From NCBI GenBank assembly GCA_016931955.1, contig JAFGDV010000023.1:1-37879 (forward strand): 37,879 nt of DNA. The letters run 5' to 3'. Below, one piece after another: positions 3,274-37,833 of this stretch. This DNA comes from Candidatus Altarchaeota archaeon (GTDB taxonomy: Archaea > Altiarchaeota > Altiarchaeia > IMC4 > QMZM01). Each line of letters starts with the position of its first letter. Positions within the stretch are counted from its first letter, which is position 1. The position numbers were made by a program, and so were the translations under genes. The notes below the pieces were generated by a model that was not told the origin of the DNA, ran no database searches, and worked only from the letters and a program-made list of their open reading frames with translations.

Positions 3274-3946
3274 CAAACCCATTTTGCACCCAACTACTCT
3301 CTGGGATTTTCCTAAACAAAGTTACGGAAAAACTCCAAAAGGTGATTGGAAATTTAATGGCGTCACCCCTGCAGGAGCTATTTACAACCTTATCTTGAGA
3401 TACACAAAACTTAGTGATTTAGTCGTAGATCCGATGTGTGGAAGCGGTACGACAATAGATGTCTGTAAAGAGGAGGGTAGAAAGGTTATTGGCTATGATA
3501 TAGAACCCACAAGGTCTGACATTATCCGAAATGATGCGAGGAAGATACCCTTGTCCGATAACCATGTGGATATGGTTTTTATCGATTCGCCTTATGGGGA
3601 TAATGTTAATTACTCAGATAACCCGAATTGCATCGGTAAAATATCCTGTGAGACGGAAGAGTTTTATCAAGAATTGGAAAAAGTTGCTAAAGAGGCATAT
3701 AGAATCCTGAAACCAGGTAAGATTATTGCTTGGATTATTGGTGATCATTGGAGAAAGAAATCAGGATTTATACCCGTTGGATTTAGAGTCCATCAAATGC
3801 TTGAAAAATACTTTCAACCTGTTGATATAATATGTTTAATAAGACGGAATCAGAGATCAAACACGAACGCATGGGAGCAAAGGGCAATAAAATATAATTT
3901 TTATTTGCGGGGATTTAAACATTTATTTATAATGAAGAAACCCTAA
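3263..3946 (+). CDS. Second DNA methyltransferase of the R-M operon
   Basis: This 227-residue amino-methyltransferase has motif I DPMCGSGTT at residues 56-64 and motif IV Asp-Ser-Pro-Tyr at 108-111. It is compact, with little room for a large target recognition domain. The N-terminal segment TLWDFPKQSYG and the KFNGVTPAGAIYNLI stretch are typical of small archaeal enzymes that carry a tryptophan-rich motif X-like start. Two methyltransferases beside one nuclease usually means a non-palindromic site with one enzyme per strand, or two modifications of one site. It overlaps the endonuclease gene by 11 bases and is followed 14 bases later by a small Cys-bearing gene. The class is firm; the division of labour is inferred. 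Confidence 0.83.
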   Translation: MIDDKPILHPTTLWDFPKQSYGKTPKGDWKFNGVTPAGAIYNLILRYTKLSDLVVDPMCGSGTTIDVCKEEGRKVIGYDIEPTRSDIIRNDARKIPLSDNHVDMVFIDSPYGDNVNYSDNPNCIGKISCETEEFYQELEKVAKEAYRILKPGKIIAWIIGDHWRKKSGFIPVGFRVHQMLEKYFQPVDIICLIRRNQRSNTNAWEQRAIKYNFYLRGFKHLFIMKKP

Positions 3947-10495: not shown

Positions 10496-10529
10496 ATTTT
10501 TATTCTTGTCTGATGTAGAATACTGTAAC
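10496..10529 (+). promoter_or_regulatory. Shared promoter leader, copy 1
   Basis: TTTTTATTCTTGTCTGATGTAGAATACTGTAAC-ATG is nearly the same as the bases before the second Cys-repeat gene at 11758-11794. The T-rich TTTTTATT works as a TATA-like box about 27 bases before the start, so the transcript is probably leaderless. Confidence 0.55.
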
Positions 10530-11747
10530 ATGAAAAAGATGATGATAACATGCTTGACATTGATCCTGCTAACAAACGGATGCCTGCAAACAGACCCCGC
10601 ACTCTGCGAACATATCGCAGACCAAAACAAAAAAGACACATGCTACAACTCACTAGCCATAAACAAAGAAGACTCCCTCTTCTGCGAAAAAATCCAAGAC
10701 CAAAAAACCAAAGAAAAATGCCACAACGACATAGCAAGATATGGAGAAATAACCCTCTGCGAACAAATAACAGATTCACAACAAAAAGACACATGCTATA
10801 ACTCACTAGCCATAAACAAACAAGACCCCCTCTTCTGCGAAAAAATACAGGGCACACAACAAAAAGACGAATGCTACGAATGGATTAGCCAAATAAGAGA
10901 AGACCCCACATTATGCGGAAAAATACAAGACCAGACCACAAAAGACAGCTGCCACACTACAATAGCACAATACACAAAAGACCCCCTAATATGCGAACAA
11001 ATAACAGACCAAGACACCAAAGACAACTGCTACGAAAACATTTTTTCAAACAACAACGACCCCGCAATCTGCGGACGGATTACGGACTCACCACAAAAAA
11101 ACGAATGCTACCTAAAAACAGCCCACAACAACAAAGACGCCACATTATGCGAACAAATCACAGACCAAAACACCAAAAACAGATGCTACTGGACAACAGC
11201 CCTAAACAAAGAAGACTCCACATTATGCGAACAGATTACGGATCCACAACAAGAATATCAATGCTATGATCTGATTGCTAAATCGAGAGGAGATCCCTCA
11301 ATCTGCGAAAAAATCAGAGACCAAAGCACCAAAGACGACTGCTATTTCAGCGCCGCAATATACAAAAACCCCCTCTTCTGCGAAAAAATCCCAAACAAAA
11401 TAAAAAAAGAATACTGTTACACCATGGTCGCCATATACTCAAACAACCCCCTAATATGCGAACAAATCCAGGATCAACAAAAAAAAGGATACTGCCACCA
11501 GAGTATTCTACTTTATAATACAGGCCCAGCATATTGCGAAAAAATCAGAGACCAAAGCACCAGAGACAACTGCTATCTGTCAACAGCCTACGACAGAAAA
11601 GACCCCACAATATGCGAACAAATACAGGACACACAACAAGAATACCAATGCTATGATTTCATTGCTCAATCAAAAGGAGATCCATCAATCTGCGAACACA
11701 TCAGAGACCAAGACACCAGAGAAGTATGCAAAAAATTCATACAATAA
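10530..11747 (+). CDS. Envelope lipoprotein of fifteen 26-residue two-Cys repeats
   Basis: From the ATG at 10530 the protein has 405 residues. A short signal peptide MKKMMITCLTLILLTNGC ends in a lipobox-like Thr-Asn-Gly-Cys, so it should be a secreted lipoprotein. The rest is about fifteen tandem repeats of 26 residues with consensus DPxLCEKIxDQxTKDxCYxx and then a short helical Ile-Ala-x-x-x-Lys. Each repeat has Cys at positions 5 and 17. The spacing suggests a helical solenoid with one disulphide per repeat, folded outside the cell. The last repeat is cut short. I know similar repeats from other uncultivated archaea, but not a function. An upstream ATG at 10506 would add eight residues but lies inside the promoter leader. 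Confidence 0.82.
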   Translation: MKKMMITCLTLILLTNGCLQTDPALCEHIADQNKKDTCYNSLAINKEDSLFCEKIQDQKTKEKCHNDIARYGEITLCEQITDSQQKDTCYNSLAINKQDPLFCEKIQGTQQKDECYEWISQIREDPTLCGKIQDQTTKDSCHTTIAQYTKDPLICEQITDQDTKDNCYENIFSNNNDPAICGRITDSPQKNECYLKTAHNNKDATLCEQITDQNTKNRCYWTTALNKEDSTLCEQITDPQQEYQCYDLIAKSRGDPSICEKIRDQSTKDDCYFSAAIYKNPLFCEKIPNKIKKEYCYTMVAIYSNNPLICEQIQDQQKKGYCHQSILLYNTGPAYCEKIRDQSTRDNCYLSTAYDRKDPTICEQIQDTQQEYQCYDFIAQSKGDPSICEHIRDQDTREVCKKFIQ

Positions 11748-11757
11748 CACAGTTCTG

Positions 11758-11794
11758 GCTTTTTATTTTCTTGTTTCACGTAGAATAGTGTAAC
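11758..11794 (+). promoter_or_regulatory. Shared promoter leader, copy 2
   Basis: TTTTTATTTTCTTGTTTCACGTAGAATAGTGTAACATG repeats the leader of the previous gene with few changes. It is a TATA-like T-rich box plus about 25 bases to the start codon. The conserved GTAGAATA-n-n-GTAAC could be an initiator or a regulator site shared by the pair. Confidence 0.55.
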
Positions 11795-12832
11795 ATGAAG
11801 AAGATCCTGTTCTCAATAGTTTTGCTCAGCGAAACAGCAACGGCATCATCCAGTGGTCTTCTCATCCGGCTAATCCAGGCACTATACTATCCAGTGTTTT
11901 TCCTAGCAACGCTCATGTACCTATACTGTATCATAGAATACCTGAAAGAAAGAAAAGACAAAAAATACCTGAAACACATAATAATCACCACCATAATAGC
12001 AGCAGCCAGCATAGCAGCCATAAACCTGATAAGCTGGGCCACATATGGATGCGTAATGATGCCCTACGCAGTCAGCGAAAACCTAGACTGCTGGGGTGCA
12101 GGATGCTTCGAACAAGAATGCCACTACAATCTGGCAATTAAAAAACAAGACCCCCTATTATGCGAACAGATCACAGACCAAGAAATCAAAGAAAGCTGCT
12201 ACACTATAGTCGCCATATACAAAGAAGACCTCGACCTCTGCGAAAAAATACAGAACACAGGGCATAGAGAACACTGTTTGATGGAAACAGCCATAAAATC
12301 GGGAAATGCCACAGTCTGCGAAAAATGCCCATATAGAGAATCCAGAGACCTATGCTATACCGCGATAGGAATAGACAAACAAGACCTCACCATATGCGAC
12401 CGAATCCAACACGATTTTGAAAAAATACTCTGCTACCAAAATATTGCAGTTTCCTCATCAAACCCTTTAATATGCGAACACTTCACTCAACCAGAATTTT
12501 GTTATACAAATATTGCAGCAGGAACAAAAAACGAATCAATCTGTGAAAAAATCACAGATCAACAGAAAAAAGAATACTGCTACGAGTCAGTAGCCTCAAA
12601 CAAACAAGACCCTGCATTATGTGAAAAAATCACAGACCAACACGCTAGAGATCGATGCTATGATTCCATAGCCTTAAACAAAAAAGACCCCACATTCTGT
12701 GAACAAATCACAAACCAGACCATCAAGGACAGTTGCTATAATTACATCGCAATAAACAAAAAAGACCCCACTCTCTGCGAACAAATCACAGACCAGGATA
12801 TAAAAGACATATGCACAAACTACACGTCATAA
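11795..12832 (+). CDS. Membrane-anchored protein with about ten 26-residue two-Cys repeats
   Basis: A 345-residue protein. The N terminus begins MKKILFSIVLLSETATA, then come two more hydrophobic stretches (about YYPVFFLATLMYLYCIIEYL and IIITTIIAAASIAAINLI) separated by a basic loop, so it is membrane-anchored. From about residue 90 the C-terminal part holds ten 26-residue repeats of the same kind as the preceding gene (DPxLCEQITDQxxKDxCYxx), with a degenerate first and a shortened sixth unit. The two genes are probably duplicates of one repeat block on different anchors: a lipid in the first, membrane helices in the second. Function unknown; envelope location is inferred. Confidence 0.8.
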   Translation: MKKILFSIVLLSETATASSSGLLIRLIQALYYPVFFLATLMYLYCIIEYLKERKDKKYLKHIIITTIIAAASIAAINLISWATYGCVMMPYAVSENLDCWGAGCFEQECHYNLAIKKQDPLLCEQITDQEIKESCYTIVAIYKEDLDLCEKIQNTGHREHCLMETAIKSGNATVCEKCPYRESRDLCYTAIGIDKQDLTICDRIQHDFEKILCYQNIAVSSSNPLICEHFTQPEFCYTNIAAGTKNESICEKITDQQKKEYCYESVASNKQDPALCEKITDQHARDRCYDSIALNKKDPTFCEQITNQTIKDSCYNYIAINKKDPTLCEQITDQDIKDICTNYTS

Positions 12833-25541: not shown

Positions 25542-28500
25542 ATGAACCTTAAGCAGAGAATCTTGGCTGTGTTGGTCTTTTTTATATTATGCTCTGGACT
25601 TACTGTGGCGGATTATGGTCGAATCTTATCTGTCCAAGAGAATTCTGGCAGAGATCTCTCGGATTATCAGGTTTTGGTTAATCTTTCAGGGGATGATTTC
25701 CCTGTTGAGTCAGCAGCAGGCGGTTCTGATATACGCTTCTACGATATGTATGGCCTTATGCTGCCTTACTGGATTGAGTCTTTTGATCCCTCCTCGCCTG
25801 AGGCGCTTATCTGGGTCAGGGTGCCTTTTATCCCTGCTAATGAGACAGCAGCTCTCTTGGTTTCTTGGGGGGAGCCTTCTCTGCCTGCGGTGAGCAATGC
25901 TTCCGCCGTCTTTGAGTGCTTTGACGACTTTGAGTCAGGCAGCTTAGGGAACTGGCAGGTTGTCGCAGCTAGTTGGTCTATCATCAATGAATCAGGTAAC
26001 TTGGTTATTAGGGGTAGTGGGGGTTCGAACACCCATCATGGCTTGGCTTGGAAGGGATTTGTTCCCTTAGCGCCTGGGATTGAGGTGAAAGCGAGGGTTA
26101 AAAACATCGACCCATATAGTTCTAGTCCTGGTAGGGTGGATCCTGGCATCTATTGGGGTTATACTTCTCTTGCAGGTTCCGCACTCCCTGGTTATGCTGC
26201 TAACTCAGATAACAGGTATCATAGGCTTCGCGTTGTCAGGTCTACGGGTTCTGAGACCATCCTTGATTCTCAATACATATCCTCTATGAGTTCTTCAAAA
26301 TACTATACCTACATCCTTCGTGTACAGGATGATGGTTCTCTCTCTGGCATGATACTTGACGGCGATTCTGTGATATATTCTACGAATGCTGTTGACCTTA
26401 CCTATGTGAGCTCAGCAAACCATCCTGGCCTATTTGCCGACTTCGACGGCAAAGCAGGTTACTGGGATGATTTCGTGGTTAGAAAATATACATATCCTGA
26501 GCCGAATGTATCAATAAGCGAGCTTCCCGTACCTAGGCTTTTTGGGTTCTCTGACAACTTCAGCAGTGATTCTGGTATGTGGACGTATGTGGGCAGCGCC
26601 TATCGTGATGCAACGAACGAGTATGTGGTTCTCACGACAAATGGAGGCGGCCAGGTCGGCGTCGTCTGGCTGAAGGAGAATATTTCGTCGAATTTTTCTG
26701 TTGACTTCAGGTATTTGATCACCTACTGTGGGTTTTATAGGGGGGATGGTATGGTTTTCATGTTTTATAAGGACCGCAATTATGTGCCTGGCAGTGGAGG
26801 GGCTCTTGGGTTCATCGGCTCCCCTTCAGTTGTTCCAGGCTATGGCGTCGAATTCCAGACTTGGCTGAGCAATCATGTTTCCTTGATTAAGGACAGCGTC
26901 GACAACCATCTAAAGTCCGTCGGCGGCTCGTGCTACTGTGATGGAGTGTGGCATAATGTTTCAGTCAGAGTCAACGATTCCGGTGTCTCAGTCTTCCGTG
27001 ATGGCGCCTTCCTGTTATCTTGGAGTGGTACTATGAATCGTTCCTTTGGTGGCTTCGGTTTTTCGGCCGCCACTGGTATGGCTGTAGAATACCATATCAT
27101 CGACGACTTCAGGATAACTGCGGGTCATTCGCCTTCTCCTCCTGAACCAGGGCCGGCATTCAATTTCTCCATCTCTGATAACCAGACCACGTCTGTCGGC
27201 GGAGACGCAGTTTATGCGTTAACTCTGAGCAACCCGAACATGTTTCCATTAATTCTTAATCTGAGCGTCTCCGGCCTTGATGCAGGCTGGTTTACTCTGA
27301 GCGATGAGTCTGTGCTTCTGGTCGCCGGTGAAACACGTGATGTCTTGTTGTATGTGTCCGTCCCCGAAGACTGTGGCGCTGCCGGAGTCCGTCTCTTTAG
27401 TGTTTCTGCAGGCGGAAAGTCTGTTGATTCTGTTTTATTCGTCGATTCTGCGCCCATAATCTCTGATCTGATACCTCATAACTACTCTACTCTGAGCTCT
27501 AATGATGTCTTGTTTTCCTGGAAGACGTCTGTGAACTCCTCCACAGAGTTGTTCCTTAAAGAGGAATCTGAGCCTGATTTTTCATCCCTTGTGGGCGTTA
27601 ATGGATTAGATCATGTTGTGCTTGCATCTAATCTTACCAGGAATATGCTCTACTCTTGGTATGTGCGCAGCTATTCTGTCTGCGGCTGCTCTAACTCCTC
27701 TGAGAGAGTCTTCTACGTAGACAACGGCGTCGTATTCACTCAGGATGATTACTTCTTTAATGTTGAGCGGGACTATAACCAGTATGTTATCCTCTCTGTC
27801 AGAAACCTGGATTCTGAGTCTCATACCTTATTAGTTCAGGCCATGAACCCCTACGATGACCTTATTGTGGGCTTCGTCGGTAATGGTTCACTTGACCAGA
27901 ACCTCGGCCTTGATCCGGGTGAATCCGCTGACATGCATTTCATGGTCCATGCTCAGGATGCGATGCTTGAAGACTATTCTCTCCTTGTTAATCTCACAAA
28001 CCTTGGCGTGGAGAACATCTCAGACTATGCCGTAGTCCACGTCCATGTCCGCCGTCCCAACATCAATTTCACGTTAACTGAGCTTAGTGTGAATCCAGTG
28101 ACCTTGGCGAAGACTTATAAGATAACTAACTACGGGGATCCGATAACAGACCTCAAGGTGTCTGCGGATGATAGTCTTTCCGCTGGTCTTTTGTTTAATC
28201 CTGTTATAAACCACGGCAACCTCCGTAGCGGTAATTCAGTCGAATTTGAAGCCATCCCCGTCCTCTTTGAGAATTTCACGGGCATTGTGGGCGAGATCAG
28301 GGTTCAGGGGTTGGATTCTGTTGTGGTGGGGGGCGCTAACTTTACTCTGCCTCCAGGCAAGCAGGTCTATCTGGGTAAGGTGTATAATCCTCAGTTGTGC
28401 ATTCAACTGGAGGACTGGTATTGCAGTAACCGCCCTAATGTCGACATATACTTTGATATTCCTGCGGGGTACTTTGCGGATAATTCTCAGAGCGGCACCC

Positions 28501-29588
28501 TGCGTATGTCGTTTGACCCAAACTATGATAACTGGCATGTTAAACCCCATAATGTCTACTTGAGCGTTAACGGGCACTCGGTTGGCTCCATAATCAACAG
28601 GATTCCTGAAGATAGTTATTCCTTCTCCTTTAGTCCGGAGCTTCTGCACTATTCTGAGAGCGGCGTCGGACGTAACGTTATCAGTCTGCGCTCAACTCAT
28701 CCTCCAGGCCATTACTCCGTCTATTACGGCGTTGGAGTATGTACTTGTCTGGATGAGTATTCTGGCTATGTTGTCGCCACTAGTTCGGAGGAGGCCAGCG
28801 AGTTGTTGTGGAGTTTAAGTTTCCTATTCAAGAGTTCATCGTTTATCGACTTTGAGTTGTTGTCTCCTCTTCTTGGTGAAGAGTTGGTCGCCGGCAGGCC
28901 TACTGTGGTGAGGGCGCGGGTTATCGATGATGGTTCAGGCGGCACCTACCCTGTGAATGCTTCTTTTTCAGGCGGCAAGGTTGTCTGGTTGTTTGATGAC
29001 GGAAAGCATGGCGACGAGGTTGCTGGGGATGGGGTCTACACCAACTATGTGGTTCCTCCTATGGCTCATACAGGCAGCCTTAATCTCTACTCCGAGAACT
29101 GTGTTACATCTGCCTTGTTTGAATTGGATTTCAACATATCCTTGCTTCCTGACTTGGCGGTTTCCTCTGCAGGCATATCCTTCTCTAATCCTTCTCCTGC
29201 AGTCAATGAATCCATAACAGTTGATGCTAGAGTCCACAACATCGGATACGATAATATCTCGGATGTCCGGGTTCAGTTGTTCGTTGGCTCTGATACGTTA
29301 TCTGAGCAGGTTTTTCCGTTTTTGCCGGTTGGCAGCCACGTTTCTGTTTCAGCGAACTGGACTGCTTCAGCAGGCGACCATCTTTTCTCTGTTTTCGCGG
29401 ATCCCTACGACGCCATCCCTGAAGTGTATGAGACCAATAATTTTGCCTCTAGGCTGCTTTCCGTAGGCGGCGGAGGTGGGGGTGGCGGAGGAGGTAATGG
29501 GACAGGTAATGAGACAGCAGGTGATCTTCCCGACCTGGCCGTCTACGGCCACGAGATCATTTTCATGAAGATTGGGGGTGGCGGATGA
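25542..29588 (+). CDS. Giant surface protein: DUF2341, lectin-like, CARDB
   Basis: A 1,348-residue secreted protein. Signal peptide about 1-24. DUF2341 (about 25-115) shows DLSDYQVLVNLSGDDFP and DIRFYDMYGLMLPYWIE. A jelly-roll domain (about 125-325) and an L-type lectin-like domain (about 330-525; GDGMVFMFYKDRNYVPG) follow. Then come several beta-sandwiches, including an Fn3-like one near 640-730. A region at about 1105-1200 shows DDGKHGDEVAGDGVYTNYVV, a pattern common before surface anchors. CARDB begins at about 1203 (LPDLAVSSAGISF). The end is odd: a Gly run (about 1310), then the opening of a second CARDB (LPDLAVYGHEIIF), then the stop. It overlaps the toxin-type gene by four bases, suggesting joint production. 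Codon choice is strongly T-ending. Confidence 0.8.
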   Translation: MNLKQRILAVLVFFILCSGLTVADYGRILSVQENSGRDLSDYQVLVNLSGDDFPVESAAGGSDIRFYDMYGLMLPYWIESFDPSSPEALIWVRVPFIPANETAALLVSWGEPSLPAVSNASAVFECFDDFESGSLGNWQVVAASWSIINESGNLVIRGSGGSNTHHGLAWKGFVPLAPGIEVKARVKNIDPYSSSPGRVDPGIYWGYTSLAGSALPGYAANSDNRYHRLRVVRSTGSETILDSQYISSMSSSKYYTYILRVQDDGSLSGMILDGDSVIYSTNAVDLTYVSSANHPGLFADFDGKAGYWDDFVVRKYTYPEPNVSISELPVPRLFGFSDNFSSDSGMWTYVGSAYRDATNEYVVLTTNGGGQVGVVWLKENISSNFSVDFRYLITYCGFYRGDGMVFMFYKDRNYVPGSGGALGFIGSPSVVPGYGVEFQTWLSNHVSLIKDSVDNHLKSVGGSCYCDGVWHNVSVRVNDSGVSVFRDGAFLLSWSGTMNRSFGGFGFSAATGMAVEYHIIDDFRITAGHSPSPPEPGPAFNFSISDNQTTSVGGDAVYALTLSNPNMFPLILNLSVSGLDAGWFTLSDESVLLVAGETRDVLLYVSVPEDCGAAGVRLFSVSAGGKSVDSVLFVDSAPIISDLIPHNYSTLSSNDVLFSWKTSVNSSTELFLKEESEPDFSSLVGVNGLDHVVLASNLTRNMLYSWYVRSYSVCGCSNSSERVFYVDNGVVFTQDDYFFNVERDYNQYVILSVRNLDSESHTLLVQAMNPYDDLIVGFVGNGSLDQNLGLDPGESADMHFMVHAQDAMLEDYSLLVNLTNLGVENISDYAVVHVHVRRPNINFTLTELSVNPVTLAKTYKITNYGDPITDLKVSADDSLSAGLLFNPVINHGNLRSGNSVEFEAIPVLFENFTGIVGEIRVQGLDSVVVGGANFTLPPGKQVYLGKVYNPQLCIQLEDWYCSNRPNVDIYFDIPAGYFADNSQSGTLRMSFDPNYDNWHVKPHNVYLSVNGHSVGSIINRIPEDSYSFSFSPELLHYSESGVGRNVISLRSTHPPGHYSVYYGVGVCTCLDEYSGYVVATSSEEASELLWSLSFLFKSSSFIDFELLSPLLGEELVAGRPTVVRARVIDDGSGGTYPVNASFSGGKVVWLFDDGKHGDEVAGDGVYTNYVVPPMAHTGSLNLYSENCVTSALFELDFNISLLPDLAVSSAGISFSNPSPAVNESITVDARVHNIGYDNISDVRVQLFVGSDTLSEQVFPFLPVGSHVSVSANWTASAGDHLFSVFADPYDAIPEVYETNNFASRLLSVGGGGGGGGGGNGTGNETAGDLPDLAVYGHEIIFMKIGGGG

Positions 29589-32500
29589 TGGATCATAGAA
29601 CCTCTCTCTTGGTCGTCTTTGTTGTTCTGTTGTCGACTTTAGGCGCTGCTGCCGGCTTCGATGTCTCCGTTGTCCCGAAGAAGGAGGAGGTGTCGGTTGG
29701 TGAAGTGGTTGACGTCGTCGTGGAACTCTCGAGTAAAGACTTTGAAGGCAACCTCTCTCTTTCAGTAGTTCTTGATAAAGAGGGGATTGATCTTTCCTGG
29801 TTTAATTGGTCTTCTCTTAATGTTTCCCTTTCTTTGGGTGAAGTGAGGGTTATCCCCTTGCGGGTCAATGTTCCCTTCATCACTTCTTCTGGGAATAAGA
29901 AGTTTGTCGTGGAAGCTGTATCCTCTGACAAGTCCTCATCCGGTAAGTGTATGTTTAAGGTCTTTGATTCTTCGCCGAGTGTTTTTCTGTCTTCTCCAGT
30001 GAATGACTCCTTCGTTGAAGACATTGTTGGAGTGGATGGCTTTGTTTCTGGCACTGATGTCCTGGTTTCTTTGTCTGTGGATTCTTCCTTTGTCTCCAGT
30101 TCTTTGCCTTATCTCTGGAATACGTCAGAATACCTGGATGGAGGGCATGTTTTGTCTTTGACCGCTTCCAGTAAAAAGGATTCTAATTCATCGTCCGTGT
30201 TTGTGGAAGTGGATAATACCTGGCCTTCTGTTTTGTTCTATTCTCCCTTGAATGGTTCCTGTGTTGCGGGTTTGGTTGAAGTGGATGGTTCTTTCTCTGA
30301 TTTGTATCTTGATTCCACGAACTTGAGCATCGACGGCGTGGTCGTCTCCGATGTTTTGCCTTATACTTGGGATACTTCCATTTACTCTGATGGCTGGCAT
30401 ATCCTTTCTCTGTCAGCCTCTGACTTCATAGGTCATCAGTCATCTGTGAGTAATCATCTTTACGTTGACAACACGCCTCTTAGTCTCTCCGTCTTTGAGC
30501 TTACCGTGAATCCTACTTTGGAGGATCCTGAGTACACCCTCTTGGGTGTGGTGAACAAGAATGCCTCTGTCTACGTTAACGGCGTCCCTGTTTCTTTGGT
30601 GAATCTTTCTTTCATGCGCTCTCTTACCTTGCATGAGGGCCTTAACTCTGTAGAAGTCGTTGCCCTGGATTGCGTGGGTAGGAATGTTTCTTGGACTCAG
30701 TCTCGTGCCTTGGACGGCGACCGTCTTCCTGATTGGTATGAGTTGTCTGTTCTTGGAACTGATCCATTGGATGGTGACTCAGATGATAACAACATCTCGG
30801 ATGGTTTTGAGGATTTTGACTCTGATTGGGTTTTGAACTATTTTGAGTTTCTTTTCTTGACTGATCCCTTCAGTAATGACACCGACGGTGATTCTTTGTC
30901 TGACTTCTTCGAGCTCCAGTACCTGGGTTCTTCTCCTCTTCTTTTTGACTCTAATGGCGACGGCTTTTCTGATGGTGTGGACGACCCCGACGGCGATTCT
31001 TTGTCTAATCTGGAGGAGCAGTCTGCCGGCAGTCATCCTTGGCATAATGACTCCGACTTCGATGGTCTTTTGGATCCTGAGGAAATAGTTTTTGGCTCTG
31101 ATCCTATGTGGTTTGACTCCGACGGTGATTTTCTCAGGGATTGGAGTGAGCGTAACTTGGGAACTGATCCCTTGAATAATGACAGTGACTTTGATGGTGT
31201 CTTGGATGGTTTGGAGCTTTATTCTCTTAAATTCTTGAGCAATGATAGCCTGGCTTCTGCCGTTGTCACCGGAGTCGGCGACTTCACTGGCTTGGTTTCT
31301 GTGGAATATTTTTCTGAGAATCCCCTCTTCGCCTATGGTAGTCTTCCGGGTTTTGTTTCTGCCGCCGAATTCAGGTCAGCCAGAAATTTTTCGTCTGCCA
31401 TGATCAGGCTTTATTATCCTTCCTCCGTCAACGAATCTAACTTGTCTTTGTTTTACTGGGATCCAATTGACCTGGAATTCATTGAAGTCGCCAACCAGAC
31501 TTGGAACCCAGATGAAGACTACATCGAAGCCGAAGTAAGCCATTTTTCATTTTATTATCTGTTTGATTCGGGCAGGGTGTTTCGTTCTTGGGATAGTATC
31601 TTGTTTGACCTTGGTGATGTTGTCCGTATTTCTGTTCCCGTCTATAATTCAGGTAATGATTCTGCTTTTGATGTTCGTGTTGGCTTGTTTGTGGGTGATC
31701 CTTTTGATGGTGGTTTTTTGGTGGATGAGGATGTTATTTCTTATATTGCTCAGGATTCCTATGAGGTGGCTTCTTTTTCTTATACGTTGTCTGATGACTT
31801 GGAGTTGTGGGTTGTTGCTGACTTTGATGAAGCCATTAATGAGTCTAATGAGGCGAATAATGACGCTTTTGTTGTGTATTCTACGAAGGATTCTGATGGG
31901 GATGGTTTGTCTGATTGGGAGGAAGTCTACGGTACTAGGTTGACTTATCCTTGGTTGCTTGTCTCTCATCCTGATCCTTGGTCTGTTCCTGATTTTAAGG
32001 GTTATGGTCTGCCTAATGTTGACTCTGACTGGGATGGTGTCCCTAATTTCTTGGATAATGATTCGGATAATGATGGTCTTTTTGACTGGGAGGAGGTCAC
32101 TGGGGTGGAATTGTTGGGCGGCAGACGCTACCACACATACATCTCCGATCCCTACAGCCCGGACACAGACAGAGACGGATTGACCGACAAAGAAGAAGTC
32201 GACGGCTGGTATGTGAAGGTTATAGATACTAAAGAAGAAGCTATAGCCTGTTATATGGCGTTTTTGGATGCTGAGAATAGGGGAGAAGAACCTACGTCGG
32301 TGGATATTACGGAATACATTGAGGAGTATGCTGTGGTTTCTAATCCTCAGGTTAATGATTCTGATCTTGATGGTGTTTTGGATTCTGAAGAGCGTTGGGC
32401 TGGTTTAGATCCTAATAAGGGTGACACGGATGGAGATTATATCCCTGATCTGGTTGAGTTGCATGGTCCCTACTTGGATGCTGATTTTTTTGATATAACT

Positions 32501-34576
32501 GGCCCTAAGTTTTCGCTTATCGATACTGAAGAACTTGGTTATCTTAAGTTCAGGTTGACTTATCGTGTCTATGACGAGGCTGGTTTGAGCGAGGTTGCAT
32601 TGAGGAAGGACGCACCTTTTGATGTTATAGAAGAACCTCAAGTCTTACCTCCTGGTAATCCAACTGAACATAATTTTTATTTTACTATATCTGCTTTGGA
32701 TGCTGTGACGGGTTTTAATGTTGTCATGAATGGTTCTGATATTCACGACAATTTTGATTCGCATGTTATAAATTGGGATGGATTGTTTGTGGAGACTGCT
32801 AAGGGAGCATCTGAATGGTATATCTTGCATTATAAGGATAGTATGAATCCTTTTGCTGGTGGGGCTTTATGTGGTATGTTTTATGGTATAGGAGGTACTG
32901 CGCAGGATATCACAAGTATTGCTGCGGAGATTGCTGATGATCCCTCTACGTTCATAACTATTATTCAGGATACGGGGGAGAGTTTTGACGAGCATGGGAT
33001 TTCTTTTCCGCAGAAGGTTTTGGATGCAATGGGTGCTCAGGTTGAAGTGTATCAGAAAGATGTGAATCCGTTTGGTAATGGTTCTGTGGAGTATGATGAG
33101 TTTAGGACTGGTTTTTATTGGGGTTATGCTGGTGGTGTTGGTGTCACTTTTCTTGTGCCTGTGGCGGGTGTTGCTAAGGCTCCTCCGCAGATAGCTAAGT
33201 ATTTGAATGTGTTGTCTGGTGCGAAGCTGGTTAGGAATATTGCTTTTATCTCTAGTAGTGGGGCTGTTGTTGGTTATGTGTTGACTGAGGTTTTCCCGGA
33301 TAGTGAACTTATCAGGGATATTTATCATACTACTCTGGGTGTTGCTGTTTTCGCCGATACTGCTTGGATTCTTCATGGAGCTGGGGTGAATGTTGTTAAG
33401 CTTAAGAATTATGCTGTTAATAGTTGCAAGTTGAGTATTAGGTTTGGTAGGGCTAAGTTGGCTCAGTTTACCAGCAAACTTACTTCTGTTTGGGGGTCCA
33501 CTAAGACTGAGAGCTTTGTCAGTAAGTTGCCTTCGACTGTTCAGGATGATCTTTTCTTGGTTTATGAGTCTAATCCTGCAGTTGTCAATGAGGTGTATTT
33601 GACGAATCTTGACTCTAAGGTCACGGTTTTGTTGGATGAGGGTTGGTTTGGCGTTGATGCTTTGGAGGCTTCTACTGTTCGGGAGGTTGGTCTTACGTCT
33701 GTTGTGGCTGTCAACTATGCACCTGTTGAGTTTGTAGGGTTTACTGCTGCCGAGTTTGACAGTGTTTTGTTGTTGGAGGAGGGTATTCCTGGGAGCGTGT
33801 CTGCGTTGTCGTCTAGCAGCGAGTTGTCTGGAGTCAATAAGCTGGTTAAAGTCGCCGAAATTAATCGTCGGGTGCCGGGCAGTGGTCAGAGTATTGGGGG
33901 AATAATGGATAAGGCGGGTGCGTCTGAGTCTGTGGATGCTTTGTATGCGGCTCGGCGTCCTTATCTTGGTAAGGGTATTCGTGAAGTCATTGAGAGAGAG
34001 AAGACTTTGTTGAAGGTTAATGGTTTATCGGCGAATGCGCCTCAGGCTCAGGAATGTTTGGAGTATTTGGGTAAAATAGAGAGGAATGCTAATAATATTC
34101 GTGCCGCAGGTTTTGATCCGGGTGAGGTGTCGAAGTGGGCGAAGGGGCGCATAGAAGTGGATGGAGTAGGTAAACCAGTCAAGACAGCGGCAACATCCAA
34201 TAACGTAGGCAACCTTGAAGGCGACCTGTTCGAACTGGAAACCTCATACAAGAAACCAACATCTAGGGGCGCGGGAGTAAAAGATATGGGCAAAACAATA
34301 CGCAACAGCGCAGGCAGCACCGACGCGGATGTTAGATACCTTAACGGAGACATACGAGAAAGCAAAAACATAGACTGGAGTAAGGTTAAACCAGGAACAG
34401 ATGAGTATACGGACCTTACTAATAATTTACAGCATAAGTTGAATGTTTTCAAAGTGTATAAAAGTAGCAATCCTTCAGCAGAAATTAGATTTAGTTTTAA
34501 AGGTGATTTGAGCGACGTGGAGAGCGGAATCAGAACATGGCTTGAGGGAGAGGGATATATCGTGGAGGGTATTTGA
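29585..34576 (+). CDS. Giant secreted polymorphic-toxin-like protein with nuclease tip
   Basis: A 1,663-residue protein. Signal peptide (about 1-24), Ig-like repeats (about 25-370), then a first block of Asp-rich calcium-binding thrombospondin-3-like repeats (about 376-550; NDSDFDGVLD). Next come an extended beta region, a CARDB-like domain (about 670-765) and a second Asp-rich block (768-960). Residues 1177-1240 hold a Gly-rich hydrophobic stretch (YWGYAGGVGVTFLVPVAGVA), as in toxins that cross membranes. A pre-toxin module (1396-1500) follows. The tip (1520-1663) has Glu1545/1550, Asp1582 and Glu1592-x-Lys1594 in DADVRYLNGDIRESKN, a PD-(D/E)XK-like nuclease site. Its codon use switches from T-ending to A/C-ending at the tip, as expected if the tip was swapped in. 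Confidence 0.72.
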   Translation: MMDHRTSLLVVFVVLLSTLGAAAGFDVSVVPKKEEVSVGEVVDVVVELSSKDFEGNLSLSVVLDKEGIDLSWFNWSSLNVSLSLGEVRVIPLRVNVPFITSSGNKKFVVEAVSSDKSSSGKCMFKVFDSSPSVFLSSPVNDSFVEDIVGVDGFVSGTDVLVSLSVDSSFVSSSLPYLWNTSEYLDGGHVLSLTASSKKDSNSSSVFVEVDNTWPSVLFYSPLNGSCVAGLVEVDGSFSDLYLDSTNLSIDGVVVSDVLPYTWDTSIYSDGWHILSLSASDFIGHQSSVSNHLYVDNTPLSLSVFELTVNPTLEDPEYTLLGVVNKNASVYVNGVPVSLVNLSFMRSLTLHEGLNSVEVVALDCVGRNVSWTQSRALDGDRLPDWYELSVLGTDPLDGDSDDNNISDGFEDFDSDWVLNYFEFLFLTDPFSNDTDGDSLSDFFELQYLGSSPLLFDSNGDGFSDGVDDPDGDSLSNLEEQSAGSHPWHNDSDFDGLLDPEEIVFGSDPMWFDSDGDFLRDWSERNLGTDPLNNDSDFDGVLDGLELYSLKFLSNDSLASAVVTGVGDFTGLVSVEYFSENPLFAYGSLPGFVSAAEFRSARNFSSAMIRLYYPSSVNESNLSLFYWDPIDLEFIEVANQTWNPDEDYIEAEVSHFSFYYLFDSGRVFRSWDSILFDLGDVVRISVPVYNSGNDSAFDVRVGLFVGDPFDGGFLVDEDVISYIAQDSYEVASFSYTLSDDLELWVVADFDEAINESNEANNDAFVVYSTKDSDGDGLSDWEEVYGTRLTYPWLLVSHPDPWSVPDFKGYGLPNVDSDWDGVPNFLDNDSDNDGLFDWEEVTGVELLGGRRYHTYISDPYSPDTDRDGLTDKEEVDGWYVKVIDTKEEAIACYMAFLDAENRGEEPTSVDITEYIEEYAVVSNPQVNDSDLDGVLDSEERWAGLDPNKGDTDGDYIPDLVELHGPYLDADFFDITGPKFSLIDTEELGYLKFRLTYRVYDEAGLSEVALRKDAPFDVIEEPQVLPPGNPTEHNFYFTISALDAVTGFNVVMNGSDIHDNFDSHVINWDGLFVETAKGASEWYILHYKDSMNPFAGGALCGMFYGIGGTAQDITSIAAEIADDPSTFITIIQDTGESFDEHGISFPQKVLDAMGAQVEVYQKDVNPFGNGSVEYDEFRTGFYWGYAGGVGVTFLVPVAGVAKAPPQIAKYLNVLSGAKLVRNIAFISSSGAVVGYVLTEVFPDSELIRDIYHTTLGVAVFADTAWILHGAGVNVVKLKNYAVNSCKLSIRFGRAKLAQFTSKLTSVWGSTKTESFVSKLPSTVQDDLFLVYESNPAVVNEVYLTNLDSKVTVLLDEGWFGVDALEASTVREVGLTSVVAVNYAPVEFVGFTAAEFDSVLLLEEGIPGSVSALSSSSELSGVNKLVKVAEINRRVPGSGQSIGGIMDKAGASESVDALYAARRPYLGKGIREVIEREKTLLKVNGLSANAPQAQECLEYLGKIERNANNIRAAGFDPGEVSKWAKGRIEVDGVGKPVKTAATSNNVGNLEGDLFELETSYKKPTSRGAGVKDMGKTIRNSAGSTDADVRYLNGDIRESKNIDWSKVKPGTDEYTDLTNNLQHKLNVFKVYKSSNPSAEIRFSFKGDLSDVESGIRTWLEGEGYIVEGI
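33772..34086. repeat. Pre-toxin module, copy 1 (direct repeat with 35221-35531)
   Basis: DNA for the module GSVSALSSSSELSGV to INRRVPGSGQSIGGIMDKAG is nearly identical to 35221-35400, with a stretch of almost unbroken identity from TTAATCGTCGGGTGCCGGGC through ATGGATAAGGCGGGTGC. Similarity continues more loosely to a shared LEYLGKxER. After this point the two genes are unrelated. It marks the junction for tip exchange. Confidence 0.75.
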
Positions 34577-34579
34577 ACT

Positions 34580-35134
34580 ATGGGCGGAAGCTTTTTTATA
34601 AAAAATTATAGGGAAGTAGCTTTTTTCAAGTCCGATATTTGTGCGAAAATAGTATCCCAATTCATTGACTTGGGGGCCATATACAAGCCAGAATTTGGTT
34701 ATTGGAGTGAAACAAAAGGCAAAGTTAGTAAGGCAACTTTAAAAGAAGCCACCAATGACGTAAGCACACAAGGGGGCTCAATACATTTTTTTTACAAAGA
34801 CATAGACTTCAGCCTAAGTTTACATTTTAAGGGTTTCATCAACCTCAAGAAGTATGGCATAGTCAGTTTGTTCATTGATCGTTGTTTTTTTAATTGGGAG
34901 ACCCTTGATTTGCTTGAGAACTATGAAATCTTCACCAGATTTGCTGAGGAGGCTTACAAGCTGATCGATCCAGTATTCTGTTGCGCCTACTACAACCAAT
35001 ACGACAAGACGGTGGATGATGCTTTCCTTGATGAGGCGCGTAAGAAGAGGAGGACTTGGGAAGAACTGAAAGAGGAACTGGAAAAGGCAATCGAATTAGA
35101 CTTGAAGTTGAAAGACCTTAAGCCGAGTAAATAA
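34580..35134 (+). CDS. Candidate immunity protein 1
   Basis: A 184-residue protein starting three bases after the giant gene's stop. It has no signal peptide, so it stays in the cytosol, as an immunity protein must. It is not recognised: an alpha/beta front part (FFIKNYREVAFFKSDIC, IDFSLSLHFKGFINLKK), a patch with Cys-Cys (VFCCAYYNQYDKT) and a highly charged helical tail (RRTWEELKEELEKAIELDLK). Position directly after a toxin tip, size and location suggest that it neutralises the nuclease tip. There is no sequence proof. Confidence 0.6.
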   Translation: MGGSFFIKNYREVAFFKSDICAKIVSQFIDLGAIYKPEFGYWSETKGKVSKATLKEATNDVSTQGGSIHFFYKDIDFSLSLHFKGFINLKKYGIVSLFIDRCFFNWETLDLLENYEIFTRFAEEAYKLIDPVFCCAYYNQYDKTVDDAFLDEARKKRRTWEELKEELEKAIELDLKLKDLKPSK

Positions 35135-35136
35135 AA

Positions 35137-35991
35137 GTGGCGAAAGCTAAGTATCATGTTTGGTTGACGTTACTGTTCTGCTTATTAGTCTTATCCAGTC
35201 CAGTTTCTTCTACTAACTCCTTGGAGGAGGGTGTTACTGGTTCGGTGTCTGCGTTGTCGTCTAGCAGTGAGCTTTCGGGTGTCAGTAATCTGGTTAAAGC
35301 CGCCGAAATTAATCGTCGGGTGCCGGGCAGTGGTCAGAGTATTGGGGGAATAATGGATAAGGCGGGTGCTGGTCGTAGCTTGGATTTGTTGTATAGTGCC
35401 CAACGAAGTGATTTGTTGGCGGGTGAGTTGGCGGTTGTTCGCAGTGGTCGCACTATTCCTGAAGTCGCAGGTGGACTGTCTCCAGCTAAGACTGAGGAGG
35501 TGTTGGAGTATTTGGGGAAACTGGAGAGACGATACGGCAGCAGTGCAATAGAAGGGAAGAATACTTTGATCTGGGCTGTGGAAGATGAAGGAGGTGTTTC
35601 AACCATAAAAAACACCAAAATAAAGGGCACGACACTGGTAGTGGAAGGAGATAACTATTATGGGTATACGCACTACTGGAAAAAACATGTTACAGGCACA
35701 ATCCCCAACGGAGACTTGTTCAAAGACATGTTCCCCGAAATAGCCGGCAACGAAGAAGCTTTTCTTAGAGAATGGGTACCTAAAACAATAAAGAACGGAG
35801 ATGTAGTAGCCCTTAGTAGCAGTAGGTTTGGGTATGTTATTGAGCCTTTTGAAGATGGGAGAAAAATGTTGGTAGTAGTTGAATACAACTTTGATGTTAA
35901 AATTGGCATTGACTTTACTCAAAGTAGTGGTTCTACTCAAAGTAGGCTAATAACCACTTACCCCTGTATAACTAAACCAAATTGTTTTTGA
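35137..35991 (+). CDS. Short secreted toxin cassette with RNase-like tip
   Basis: A 284-residue protein starting at a GTG two bases after the previous stop. Signal peptide (about 1-25, VWLTLLFCLLVLSSPVSS), then the same pre-toxin module as the giant protein (31-80, VTGSVSALSSSSELSG, RRVPGSGQSIGGIMDKAGA), and a shared LEYLGKLERR (123-132). The tip (140-284) is unrelated to the giant tip. It has YGYTHYWKKHV (His179 and His184), then an Ile-Lys-Asn-Gly-Asp strand, and ends LITTYP. This layout resembles barnase/EndoU-like (BECR) RNase toxins. It looks like an orphan cassette: a signal, a module and a spare tip without the long stalk. A standalone secreted toxin is the other reading. Confidence 0.65.
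   Translation: MAKAKYHVWLTLLFCLLVLSSPVSSTNSLEEGVTGSVSALSSSSELSGVSNLVKAAEINRRVPGSGQSIGGIMDKAGAGRSLDLLYSAQRSDLLAGELAVVRSGRTIPEVAGGLSPAKTEEVLEYLGKLERRYGSSAIEGKNTLIWAVEDEGGVSTIKNTKIKGTTLVVEGDNYYGYTHYWKKHVTGTIPNGDLFKDMFPEIAGNEEAFLREWVPKTIKNGDVVALSSSRFGYVIEPFEDGRKMLVVVEYNFDVKIGIDFTQSSGSTQSRLITTYPCITKPNCF
35221..35531. repeat. Pre-toxin module, copy 2
   Basis: Second copy of the module at 33772-34086. The two copies could recombine so that the stalk gene takes over the second tip and its neighbour immunity gene; the deletion would remove the first tip and its immunity gene. Confidence 0.75.
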
Positions 35992-35997
35992 TTTAAA

Positions 35998-36537
35998 ATG
36001 GATAAATTTCGGATAGAAGTTGGGGATTTAACGAAGTATGGGGATAAATCTGAGCTGCGGGGCTTTTCTCATGAAAACCCAAATCTTCATCCACTGGATG
36101 TCTATACTTTTGCAGAAATCTCCGTTTATTTTAATGGCGAGCTTATTAATTCTCCTCGAGCAAAAGAAAAGGGTTGGAATTCATCAGCTACAGCATATTT
36201 ATTGAATTTCTTCCAGGATCTTCTTTCTGAAAAAGTATATTCTAATGGAGAACAATATGATGCTCGTTTAGATTATGGTGGTCCAGGATTTTATTTTAAG
36301 CGAACAGGTGAGAACATGGAAGTTAGTTTCGGCCCTTCGCCGCCAAATGAATACAGTCGAGTGACTGTCTCGTATCTGGATTTTCTCGAGGAGGTTCTCC
36401 GGGCTAGTGGAGAGTTCCTCGATAAGTTATTTGAGATTAATTCTAAGCTTAAGGATCATGAGGATATTGCGGCGTTGATTAAAGAGCGTGAGCAGGTTAA
36501 GGCATTATATGAGCGACTGAAGAATGAGAGTAAATAG
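35998..36537 (+). CDS. Candidate immunity protein 2
   Basis: A 179-residue cytosolic protein six bases after the RNase-like cassette. Not recognised. A beta-rich front (DKFRIEVGDLTKYGDK, YTFAEISVYFNGELI), a motif YGGPGFYFKRTGENMEVSFG in the middle, and a C-terminal coiled-coil-like helix (LIKEREQVKALYERLKNESK). It has no similarity to candidate immunity protein 1, as expected because the tips differ. The role is inferred from position. Confidence 0.6.
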   Translation: MDKFRIEVGDLTKYGDKSELRGFSHENPNLHPLDVYTFAEISVYFNGELINSPRAKEKGWNSSATAYLLNFFQDLLSEKVYSNGEQYDARLDYGGPGFYFKRTGENMEVSFGPSPPNEYSRVTVSYLDFLEEVLRASGEFLDKLFEINSKLKDHEDIAALIKEREQVKALYERLKNESK

Positions 36538-36634
36538 TTTTCTGTTCAGGTTAGGTGTATTATGTCTCCTGCTTAGTGTTGTTCTCTCACCCGCGGCGAC
36601 TGCTTTGGATTCTTTGTCTGAGTTGTCTGCGTAA
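36524..36634 (+). pseudogene. Decayed third toxin cassette (signal peptide stub)
   Basis: A 36-codon frame overlaps the end of the previous gene by 14 bases. It starts Met-Arg-Val-Asn-Ser, then a typical signal core (LGVLCLLLSVVLSPAATA), and runs into ALDSLSELSA before the stop. The end parallels the start of the pre-toxin module after the signal of the preceding cassette (SLEEG...SSELSG). I read it as the leftover of a third cassette whose module and tip were lost. A short secreted peptide is less likely. Confidence 0.5.
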
Positions 36635-36656
36635 GGTTGCTGGGGTTTCAGGGGAG

Positions 36657-36713
36657 ATATGTAAACTTTTTGTTCAGGTTATTTATATATGAGTTTCCTA
36701 TAAGTTTACATAT
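36657..36713. promoter_or_regulatory. Inverted repeat around a TATA box
   Basis: ATATGTAAACTT (36657-36668) and AAGTTTACATAT (36702-36713) are perfect 12-base inverted repeats, 33 bases apart. Between them is the TATA-like ATTTATATATG (36681-36691). The right arm runs into the ATG start codon at 36712, which is therefore leaderless. A protein bound at both arms would block the promoter. The downstream gene encodes HTH domains, so autoregulation is likely. Confidence 0.7.
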
Positions 36714-37833
36714 GGAGTATGAGATCCTATCCCACCTACTGTTAAGCGGGGAAAAATCTGTAAAAGAAATAGCCGAGTTATTGAAGATATCGGAGACCTA
36801 CGCCTCCAAACTCACGGATAGGATGGAGCGAGAAAATCTGGTATCAAAGAAGAGATCCGGCAGACAGGTTATTGTAAAACCAAATACAAGCAGCCCCCTC
36901 GTCAAGGAATTCTCAAGATTCGTCGTCATCGTGGGAAACCACCCACCATACACGCCAAAGGATTTCCTAACACCCGAAAGCAAAAGAATAATAACCAAGT
37001 CACTAATCAAAAAACCAAAAAGCATCAAAGAGATAAAAAAAGAGACAAAATACTCGAGAGTCACCATAAACAAGACACTGAAATCCCTGAAAAAATCAGG
37101 GATCGTGAAAACAGAAGACAGAAGACCTAGGAAGTATCATACCACAGACAGCCCACTAACCAAGGCATTGACTCCGATAATAGAATACCTAGAACTAGGC
37201 ATACGATCAAAAAATGTGTTAAACAGGATAGCATCCGACCCCAGAACAGAAGCCTTAGTAGTATACGGCTCAGAGGTGTGGGGCAGAAAAGACGAACTCA
37301 GCGACGTAGATGCGTTTGTGGTCGTTGATTCACCAGAGAACGTAAAGGCTATTAAAGAATATGAGCAAGAAGGTTTAGAACTGAACGCATTCTCCAGGAA
37401 AGGCTTAGTCCATCTGATACGAAGAGAGCCGTGGTTTTTCAGGTTAATCCTCCAAGGCAAAATCCTGACCGGAGAAGACTTCTTGAAGGACATATCTGAT
37501 ACCCGATCAAAGGGAGACACAGGTGAAGTGGTTGGAGAGATAAAGGAAATGCTTGAGGGCTTAGATAGGATTACATCGACAGAAAAAGCCAAGATCCTTA
37601 TGTACTGTATAAGAAGCCTCCTTGTATTAAGATTACATCAAGAAGACAAACTGTCCTGGGAAAACTATTACAGGGAATTAGATAAGGAGTATCCACGATA
37701 CAAGGAGATAAGGAGGATGCGTCATGGTCTGGGAGAAGTCAAAGCCAAGGACATAGAAAACATAAGAGATAAACTGTTGAAGGAGATAGGATATGTCAAA
37801 AAAGAGCAGAAAAAAATCAGCAACAAGCCTTGA
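36712..37833 (+). CDS. Winged-HTH nucleotidyltransferase protein
   Basis: From the ATG at 36712 the protein has 373 residues. Two winged HTH domains (about 1-60, LLKISETYASKLTDRME; about 85-150, TKYSRVTINKTLKSLKKSGI), then a minimal nucleotidyltransferase with Gly186-Ser187 and Asp198-Val-Asp200 (YGSEVWGRKDELSDVD). A C-terminal helical part (about 285-370, EKAKILMYCIRSLLVLRL) looks like a HEPN-type or scaffold helix bundle. Such three-part proteins occur in archaea near toxin-antitoxin loci; they may both regulate DNA and modify a partner. The inverted repeat at its start suggests autoregulation. The end overlaps the next gene by 41 bases. The GTG- or ATG-extended frame back to 36637 lies upstream of the TATA box and is not used. 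Confidence 0.75.
   Translation: MEYEILSHLLLSGEKSVKEIAELLKISETYASKLTDRMERENLVSKKRSGRQVIVKPNTSSPLVKEFSRFVVIVGNHPPYTPKDFLTPESKRIITKSLIKKPKSIKEIKKETKYSRVTINKTLKSLKKSGIVKTEDRRPRKYHTTDSPLTKALTPIIEYLELGIRSKNVLNRIASDPRTEALVVYGSEVWGRKDELSDVDAFVVVDSPENVKAIKEYEQEGLELNAFSRKGLVHLIRREPWFFRLILQGKILTGEDFLKDISDTRSKGDTGEVVGEIKEMLEGLDRITSTEKAKILMYCIRSLLVLRLHQEDKLSWENYYRELDKEYPRYKEIRRMRHGLGEVKAKDIENIRDKLLKEIGYVKKEQKKISNKP

What the first reader, a model, noticed from the sequence alone, without database searches (positions are those of the whole stretch)
25542..36634. Archaeal polymorphic-toxin locus with a giant stalk, swappable tip and orphan cassettes
The order is: surface protein, 1,663-residue secreted protein, small cytosolic gene, short secreted gene, small cytosolic gene, secreted stub. 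The two secreted proteins share a nearly identical module (33772-34086 and 35221-35531) and then diverge completely into different nuclease-like tips. This is the logic of bacterial contact-dependent toxins (full-length toxin, immunity, orphan tip, orphan immunity), here in an archaeon with Ig-like and Ca-binding repeats as the stalk. Such systems are barely described in archaea.
Basis: partly seen in the sequence, partly recalled or inferred. Interest (0 to 1): 0.92.

Follow-up and report, generated by a model that had tools for sequence, protein, structure and literature searches.

The report
Archaeal swappable-tip toxin and immunity locus
An archaeon carries a six-gene operon in which a giant secreted surface protein ends in a swappable, probably toxic tip followed by a likely immunity gene, with a spare secreted tip and its own likely immunity gene behind it; the same layout turns up in other archaea, so this is a real but not unprecedented weapon system.

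Summary
Six co-directional genes abut or overlap (25542-36634). The giant and the short secreted protein share one module (91% DNA identity over 149 nt), then diverge; both tips break sharply in codon composition from their modules. The host is archaeal by its SSU rRNA.

Relatives make the case. Residues 95-1325 of the giant align with a 2,892-aa protein from another archaeal order (31%, E 2e-123), and its pretoxin region with about ten haloarchaeal plasmid giants. Homology always stops before the C-terminal tip. In these loci the next gene is often an immunity-family gene (Imm49-like or TsiV-like), and tip class matches immunity class 10 of 10. Two further genomes repeat this layout: toxin, immunity, signal-peptide-bearing orphan tip, second small gene.

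So it is an archaeal polymorphic toxin system. Not shown: what this window's own tips do. Tip 1 has a PD-(D/E)XK-like motif and one weak match; tip 2 and both immunity candidates have no detectable relatives; AlphaFold models were useless. Contact dependence was not tested. Archaeal polymorphic toxins are already described. Signal peptides on the spare tips, seen in three genomes, are the most distinctive feature.

The parts
25542..29588 (+). Large secreted surface protein (1,348 aa): DUF2341, lectin-like and CARDB domains; first gene of the operon, role in the system unproven
   Evidence: Pfam DUF2341 E 2e-23, CARDB 1.8e-13, L-type lectin 3e-11 (below its cut-off); overlaps the giant gene by 4 nt
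29585..34576 (+). Giant secreted toxin candidate (1,663 aa): signal peptide, Ig-like and TSP3 and CARDB stalk, pretoxin region, shared module, C-terminal tip
   Evidence: CARDB E 9e-8; TSP3-rich match to CglD; residues 95-1325 align with L073 at E 2e-123
29657..32464 (+). Stalk of the giant (residues 25-960): Ig-like, TSP3 (Ca-binding) and CARDB repeats
32465..33289 (+). Ig-like plus hydrophobic pretoxin region (about residues 961-1235), the conserved part shared with haloarchaeal and other archaeal giants
   Evidence: tblastn E 2e-4; alignments A2/A3; profile hits
33770..34093 (+). Shared pre-tip module in the giant (residues 1396-1503)
   Evidence: 91% DNA identity over 149 nt with the orphan copy
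34094..34573 (+). Tip 1 (residues 1504-1663), candidate PD-(D/E)XK nuclease (TDADVRYLNGDIRESK)
   Evidence: codon break; Smith-Waterman against the L073 tip z 4.4-5.1, p 0.001-0.003; profile test negative; no Pfam hit
34580..35134 (+). Immunity candidate 1 (184 aa, no signal peptide)
   Evidence: 3 nt after the giant gene; position matches TsiV-like/Imm49-like genes in relatives; not itself recognised as one
35137..35991 (+). Orphan toxin cassette (284 aa): signal peptide plus shared module plus tip 2
   Evidence: same layout in L086 and L096
35218..35532 (+). Shared module in the orphan (residues 28-132)
35533..35988 (+). Tip 2 (residues 133-284); possible BECR-type RNase by eye only
   Evidence: codon break p 3e-4; no family hit; weak similarity to L086/L096 orphan tips p 0.012-0.017
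35998..36537 (+). Immunity candidate 2 (179 aa, no signal peptide)
   Evidence: 6 nt after the orphan gene; no relatives found
36524..36634 (+). Secreted stub (36 aa, signal-peptide-like), probable remnant of another orphan cassette
   Evidence: translation; overlaps the immunity 2 gene by 14 nt

Best explanation
A polymorphic toxin-immunity operon of an archaeon. The giant protein is exported by its signal peptide and stands on the cell surface or is shed, held out by a Ca-binding TSP3/Ig-like/CARDB stalk. Its pretoxin region positions or releases the C-terminal tip, which enters a neighbouring cell and acts in the cytosol, most likely as a nuclease; the adjacent cytosolic small protein protects the producer and its kin. 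The orphan cassette is a second tip with its own immunity gene. The near-identical module lets recombination swap tip plus immunity onto the giant, and its signal peptide suggests the spare tip can also be secreted on its own. Shown by sequence: operon, signal-peptide-like starts, shared module, tip divergence, codon break, conserved stalk/pretoxin with unrelated tips in other archaea, immunity-family genes and signal-peptide-bearing orphans in relatives. Inferred: toxicity, nuclease activity, immunity, surface location, delivery route, swapping in this lineage.
For: Module shared and tips different; codon break at both borders. Delivery part (residues 95-1325) aligns over 1,302 positions with L073 and stops before the tip; the haloarchaeal matches end by about residue 1234. 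Haloarchaeal loci: Imm49 directly behind the giant (L077, E 6e-7) and behind its orphan (8e-5). Six immunity genes form one family by leave-one-out (E 2e-7 to 9e-44), three weakly matching TsiV, immunity for VRR-NUC nucleases. Four relatives' tips form one PD-(D/E)XK-like family, one with a weak Mrr_cat match. Tip class matches immunity class 10 of 10. G424 and G428 repeat the layout with signal-peptide-bearing orphans. Patchy distribution: 4 of 394 archaeal genomes, none of the window's 28 class relatives.
Against: The window's module, tip 2 and both immunity candidates have no recognisable relatives in any search, and tip 1 has only one weak pairwise match. Tip 1 fails a profile test against relatives' tips. 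Structure models had mean pLDDT about 40. No experiment exists. Cognate pairing is inferred from position only.
Confidence: 0.86

Rival explanations
1. A phase- or recombination-variable surface adhesin or self/nonself recognition protein (VARTIG-like): the C-terminal regions are binding domains and the small genes are partners, not immunity proteins.
For: CARDB/Ig-rich giant first in an array with shorter relatives of its C terminus, as in VARTIG (PMC8416519); an adhesin-like gene opens the operon.
Against: VARTIG varies in a C-terminal Ig domain, and its small partners are mostly membrane proteins. Here the variable part comes after a pretoxin region and the small genes lack signal peptides; relatives carry PD-(D/E)XK-like or BECR-like tips with Imm49-like or TsiV-like genes.
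Confidence: 0.08
2. A decayed toxin locus: the stub and ORFan tips are degenerate leftovers and only the stalk still has a role.
For: The stub is truncated; frameshifted or split toxins occur in relatives (L096 toxin A; L067).
Against: Giant, both tips and both small genes are intact ORFs with tight spacing; the module pair shows 10 synonymous against 5 non-synonymous substitutions over 50 codons.
Confidence: 0.04
3. A secreted effector aimed at very different organisms (bacteria, a host cell or a symbiotic partner) rather than at kin or close competitors.
For: The target cannot be read from sequence; Zhang et al. 2012 (PMC3482391) link systems without immunity genes to distant targets.
Against: Immunity candidates follow both tips, which points to targets including close relatives.
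Confidence: 0.1

Closest known systems
Polymorphic toxin systems, Sec-dependent type (Zhang et al. 2012, PMC3482391)
   Same: Signal peptide, long repeat region, pretoxin region, variable C-terminal tip, adjacent immunity gene, orphan toxin-immunity cassettes that allow one-step replacement of tip plus immunity.
   Different: Stalk of TSP3/Ig-like/CARDB rather than RHS or filamentous hemagglutinin repeats; no peptidase domain recognised; tips and immunities outside known families; orphan cassettes carry their own signal peptide.
Haloarchaeal plasmid giants with the same pretoxin region (Halorussus, Haloprofundus, Natronococcus, Natribaculum, Haloterrigena, Haloarcula; L067-L070, L074-L079)
   Same: Homologous TSP3 stalk, Ig-like and pretoxin regions, small genes downstream; Haloarcula sp. 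CBA1115 also has an orphan tip with an Imm49-like gene.
   Different: Tips and immunities differ; annotated only as TSP3, VWA, dockerin or hypothetical proteins.
Giants and orphan arrays of another archaeal order (L073 G198, L084 G425, L085 G232, L086 G424, L096 G428)
   Same: L073 aligns with the window giant over 1,302 positions; L086 and L096 repeat toxin, immunity, signal-peptide orphan, second small gene.
   Different: Different pre-tip module; PD-(D/E)XK-like main tips with TsiV-like immunity; orphan tips of another family.
VARTIG modules of Thermococcales (PMC8416519)
   Same: Large Ig-domain protein first in a variable array with C-terminal relatives downstream.
   Different: Variable part is an Ig domain, partners mostly membrane proteins, no toxin domains found.
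Bacterial CDI (CdiA/CdiB/CdiI)
   Same: Tip plus immunity logic and orphan modules.
   Different: No two-partner secretion domain or CdiB seen; different stalk; spare tips carry their own signal peptides.
Haloarchaeal T6SS-like CIS (PMC11566945)
   Same: Archaeal toxin-immunity pairs in antagonism.
   Different: Delivered by a contractile injection machine, of which there is no sign in this operon.

Membership tests
Polymorphic toxin system | N-terminal export signal and long repeat region | tested here: met
   Signal-peptide-like start by eye; TSP3/CARDB/Ig-like stalk
Polymorphic toxin system | Constant delivery part joined to unrelated C-terminal tips in relatives | tested here: met
   Alignment with L073 stops at residue 1325; haloarchaeal matches stop by about residue 1234; Halorussus plasmids pair a 98% identical pretoxin with different C termini
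Polymorphic toxin system | Orphan cassette sharing the pre-tip module with a different tip | tested here: met
   replicated with other modules in L086 and L096
Polymorphic toxin system | Small gene directly after each tip | tested here: met
   Gaps of 3 and 6 nt
Polymorphic toxin system | Small genes belong to a known immunity family | tested here: not met
   No Pfam, NCBIfam or PADLOC hit; immunity 1 scores below shuffles against the TsiV-like profile. Immunity families are open-ended, so this is not a strict requirement; it lowers confidence in these two genes only. Met in relatives
Polymorphic toxin system | Tip is a toxin (nuclease or other) domain | tested here: inconclusive
   Tip 1 motif and pairwise p 0.001-0.003, profile negative; tip 2 unassigned; models pLDDT about 40
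Polymorphic toxin system | Tip inhibits a target and the immunity protein neutralises it | not testable with these tools
   Needs experiment
VARTIG | Hypervariable C-terminal Ig domain with mostly membrane-protein partners | tested here: not met
   Variable part follows a pretoxin region; small genes have no obvious transmembrane segment or signal peptide
CDI (two-partner secretion) | TPS domain and CdiB porin | tested here: not met
   No such Pfam domain in the giant; no such gene among the operon's ORFs
T6SS/eCIS effector | Contractile injection genes nearby | tested here: inconclusive
   None recognised among the ORFs read in the window; rest of the genome not searched for them

The most novel reading that the evidence does not exclude
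A distinct archaeal lineage of polymorphic toxins, spread across several archaeal groups, in which spare tips are complete secreted mini-toxins (signal peptide plus linker module plus tip plus immunity), so one operon could deploy both a stalk-mounted and a freely secreted toxin while using the spare as recombination stock.
Probability: 0.4. Interest if true: 0.72.

Novelty: new member of a known kind. Interest (0 to 1): 0.52.

Why it matters
It gives a concrete, intact archaeal toxin-immunity operon with two testable tip/immunity pairs of unknown families, and links it by homology to haloarchaeal plasmid loci, so tests could be done in genetically tractable haloarchaea. If the spare tips are secreted, archaeal arrays would differ from bacterial orphan cassettes, which are usually thought to be silent until recombined (own knowledge).

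Tried and rejected
Single-chain AlphaFold of tip plus immunity (the reading frames allow it): mean pLDDT 42 and 40, so no fold search was run. Direct searches for the module, tips and immunities: only the window itself or chance hits. Class relatives with TSP3 surface proteins: no matching toxin locus among those read. Immunity 1 as a TsiV-like member, from a shared motif seen by eye: rejected by profile against 500 shuffles. Tip 1 as a member of the relatives' PD-(D/E)XK tip profile: not supported, although pairwise scores against L073 beat nearly all shuffles. Tip 2 against L086/L096 orphan tips: weak (p 0.012-0.017 before correction), not claimed. Immunity 2 against the orphan small genes of L086/L096: no similarity. 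Makarova et al. 2019 mBio is not held in the library, so I could not check whether this exact architecture is described there; what I say of its content beyond its citation in PMC8416519 is own knowledge.
Full report
What is there. The window lies in a 1.55 Mb, 46-contig genome. Its SSU rRNA is archaeal: the archaeal model wins its clan with 888 bits. Between 25542 and 36634 six genes run the same way. Their borders overlap by 4 nt, then lie 3, 2 and 6 nt apart, then overlap by 14 nt, so one transcript is likely; TTTTTAAA lies about 50 nt before the first ATG. The order is: surface protein (DUF2341, lectin-like, CARDB), 1,663-aa secreted giant, 184-aa gene, 284-aa secreted gene, 179-aa gene, 36-aa secreted stub.

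The shared module is not chance. 33773-33921 and 35221-35369 match at 91% over 149 nt, with an identical run of about 60 nt, and these are the only two copies in the genome. Just upstream, identity is at background; beyond the module the proteins do not align. Codon third positions change at the same border in both genes: A rises from 8-12% to 31-32% (p 1e-11 and 3e-4), while stalk and pretoxin region do not differ from each other (p 1.0). Two tips of different composition joined to the same module is what tip replacement predicts. It does not prove a recent exchange.

Relatives. The module, tip 2 and the two small proteins found nothing beyond the window in archaeal genomes; direct scans of genome, viral and plasmid collections for the window's pieces were also negative, apart from one lead. 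That lead was the region just upstream: residues about 1090-1225 match haloarchaeal plasmid proteins (E 2e-4), some annotated as TSP3 proteins. With an alignment of that region a clear family appeared. L073 (genome G198, another order) has a 2,892-aa protein aligning to residues 95-1325 over 1,302 positions at 31% identity, E 2e-123. Haloarchaeal giants L067-L070 and L074-L079 align through stalk and pretoxin. The matches stop by about residue 1234 in haloarchaea and at 1325 in L073, always before the tip. The Halorussus strain carries the pretoxin on two plasmids at 98% identity with different C termini.

Toxin and immunity in the relatives. Haloarcula sp. CBA1115 has Imm49 directly behind the giant (E 6e-7, just below Pfam's cut-off), then an orphan tip with its own Imm49-like gene (8e-5). 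Six downstream genes from several genomes form one family by leave-one-out test (E 2e-7 to 9e-44); three weakly match TsiV, immunity for VRR-NUC nucleases (E 0.002-0.03, below cut-off). Main tips of L073, L084, L085 and L086 form one family by the same test; they carry a D...ExK motif and L073 weakly matches Mrr_cat (E 0.003). One Haloprofundus tip weakly matches PBECR3 (2e-4). Tip class and immunity class go together in 10 of 10 pairs: six PD-(D/E)XK tips of one class with TsiV-like genes and four of another class with Imm49-like genes. By simple counting this has probability 1 in 210, though the loci are not all independent and L074 is tied to its tip class only at E 0.003.

The layout is replicated. 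In G424 (L086) the order is toxin, immunity, 266-aa orphan with signal peptide plus pre-tip module plus a different tip, second small gene, then another signal-peptide orphan cut by the contig end. In G428 (L096) it is toxin with a frameshift, immunity, 346-aa signal-peptide orphan, second small gene, then a second complete toxin with its immunity. The two orphan tips are related (E 7e-20) and differ from the main tips. Their second small genes are not recognisably related (p 0.08), so orphan tip-immunity pairing is not shown there. The module in these genomes is unrelated to the window's, so the layout recurs with different parts.

What remains unproven. Tip 1 contains TDADVRYLNGDIRESK, matching the D...ExK pattern, and aligns with the L073 tip end to end better than nearly all shuffles (p 0.001-0.003). 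With about a dozen comparisons this is suggestive only, and the profile test was negative. Tip 2 has H/KH and TTYP motifs that remind me of BECR RNases; no search confirmed it. Immunity candidates rest on position and lack of signal peptide. AlphaFold without relatives gave pLDDT about 40. Distribution is patchy: 4 of 394 archaeal genomes by profile and none of the window's 28 class relatives, consistent with horizontal transfer.

Mechanism and place among known systems. The best reading is a polymorphic toxin operon as defined by Zhang et al. 2012 (PMC3482391), whose account of toxin-immunity cassettes replacing tip and immunity in one event fits this locus. Archaeal members have been predicted (Makarova et al. 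2019, cited in PMC8416519; also PMC6393860), so the kind is known. VARTIG (PMC8416519) resembles it in order but not in content. Haloarchaeal CIS (PMC11566945) shows archaeal toxin-immunity antagonism by another route. The distinctive point is that spare tips carry their own signal peptides here and in two other genomes. Whether bacterial or archaeal surveys already record that could not be checked.

Noticed in passing
10506-12832: Two Cys-rich repeat lipoprotein-like genes (CEQITDQ..K..CY repeats). A homologous repeat lipoprotein (E about 1e-14; repeats may inflate this) sits right beside the toxin/immunity pair in L085 (4977-6134).
   Followed up: partly
36637-37833: MarR/TrmB-type double winged-helix protein with a nucleotidyltransferase domain just after the stub; Haloprofundus L069 also has an ArsR-type regulator and a DUF6036 nucleotidyltransferase downstream of its toxin array.
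   Followed up: no
1229-3946: Two DNA-methyltransferase-like genes flanking a third gene, possibly a restriction-modification system; only the one at 3263-3946 has a family hit.
   Followed up: no
29500-29588 and L073:38-967: In both the window and L073 the ORF just upstream of the giant ends at what looks like the start of a CARDB domain (LPDLAVYGHEI; RPNLVISSSDI). Coincidence or a shared insertion point is unknown.
   Followed up: no
L096:2023-6470: Toxin A in G428 is split by a frameshift (or assembly error) inside the pre-tip module, leaving its tip as a separate ORF.
   Followed up: no
L069:1182-5951: Haloprofundus giant with a weak PBECR3 match in its tip, followed directly by a 183-aa TPR-like small gene.
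   Followed up: partly
L067:1646-7911: In Halorussus plasmid unnamed2 the stalk and pretoxin/tip lie in two adjacent ORFs, while the paralogue on unnamed3 (L068) is one ORF; a likely split gene.
   Followed up: no
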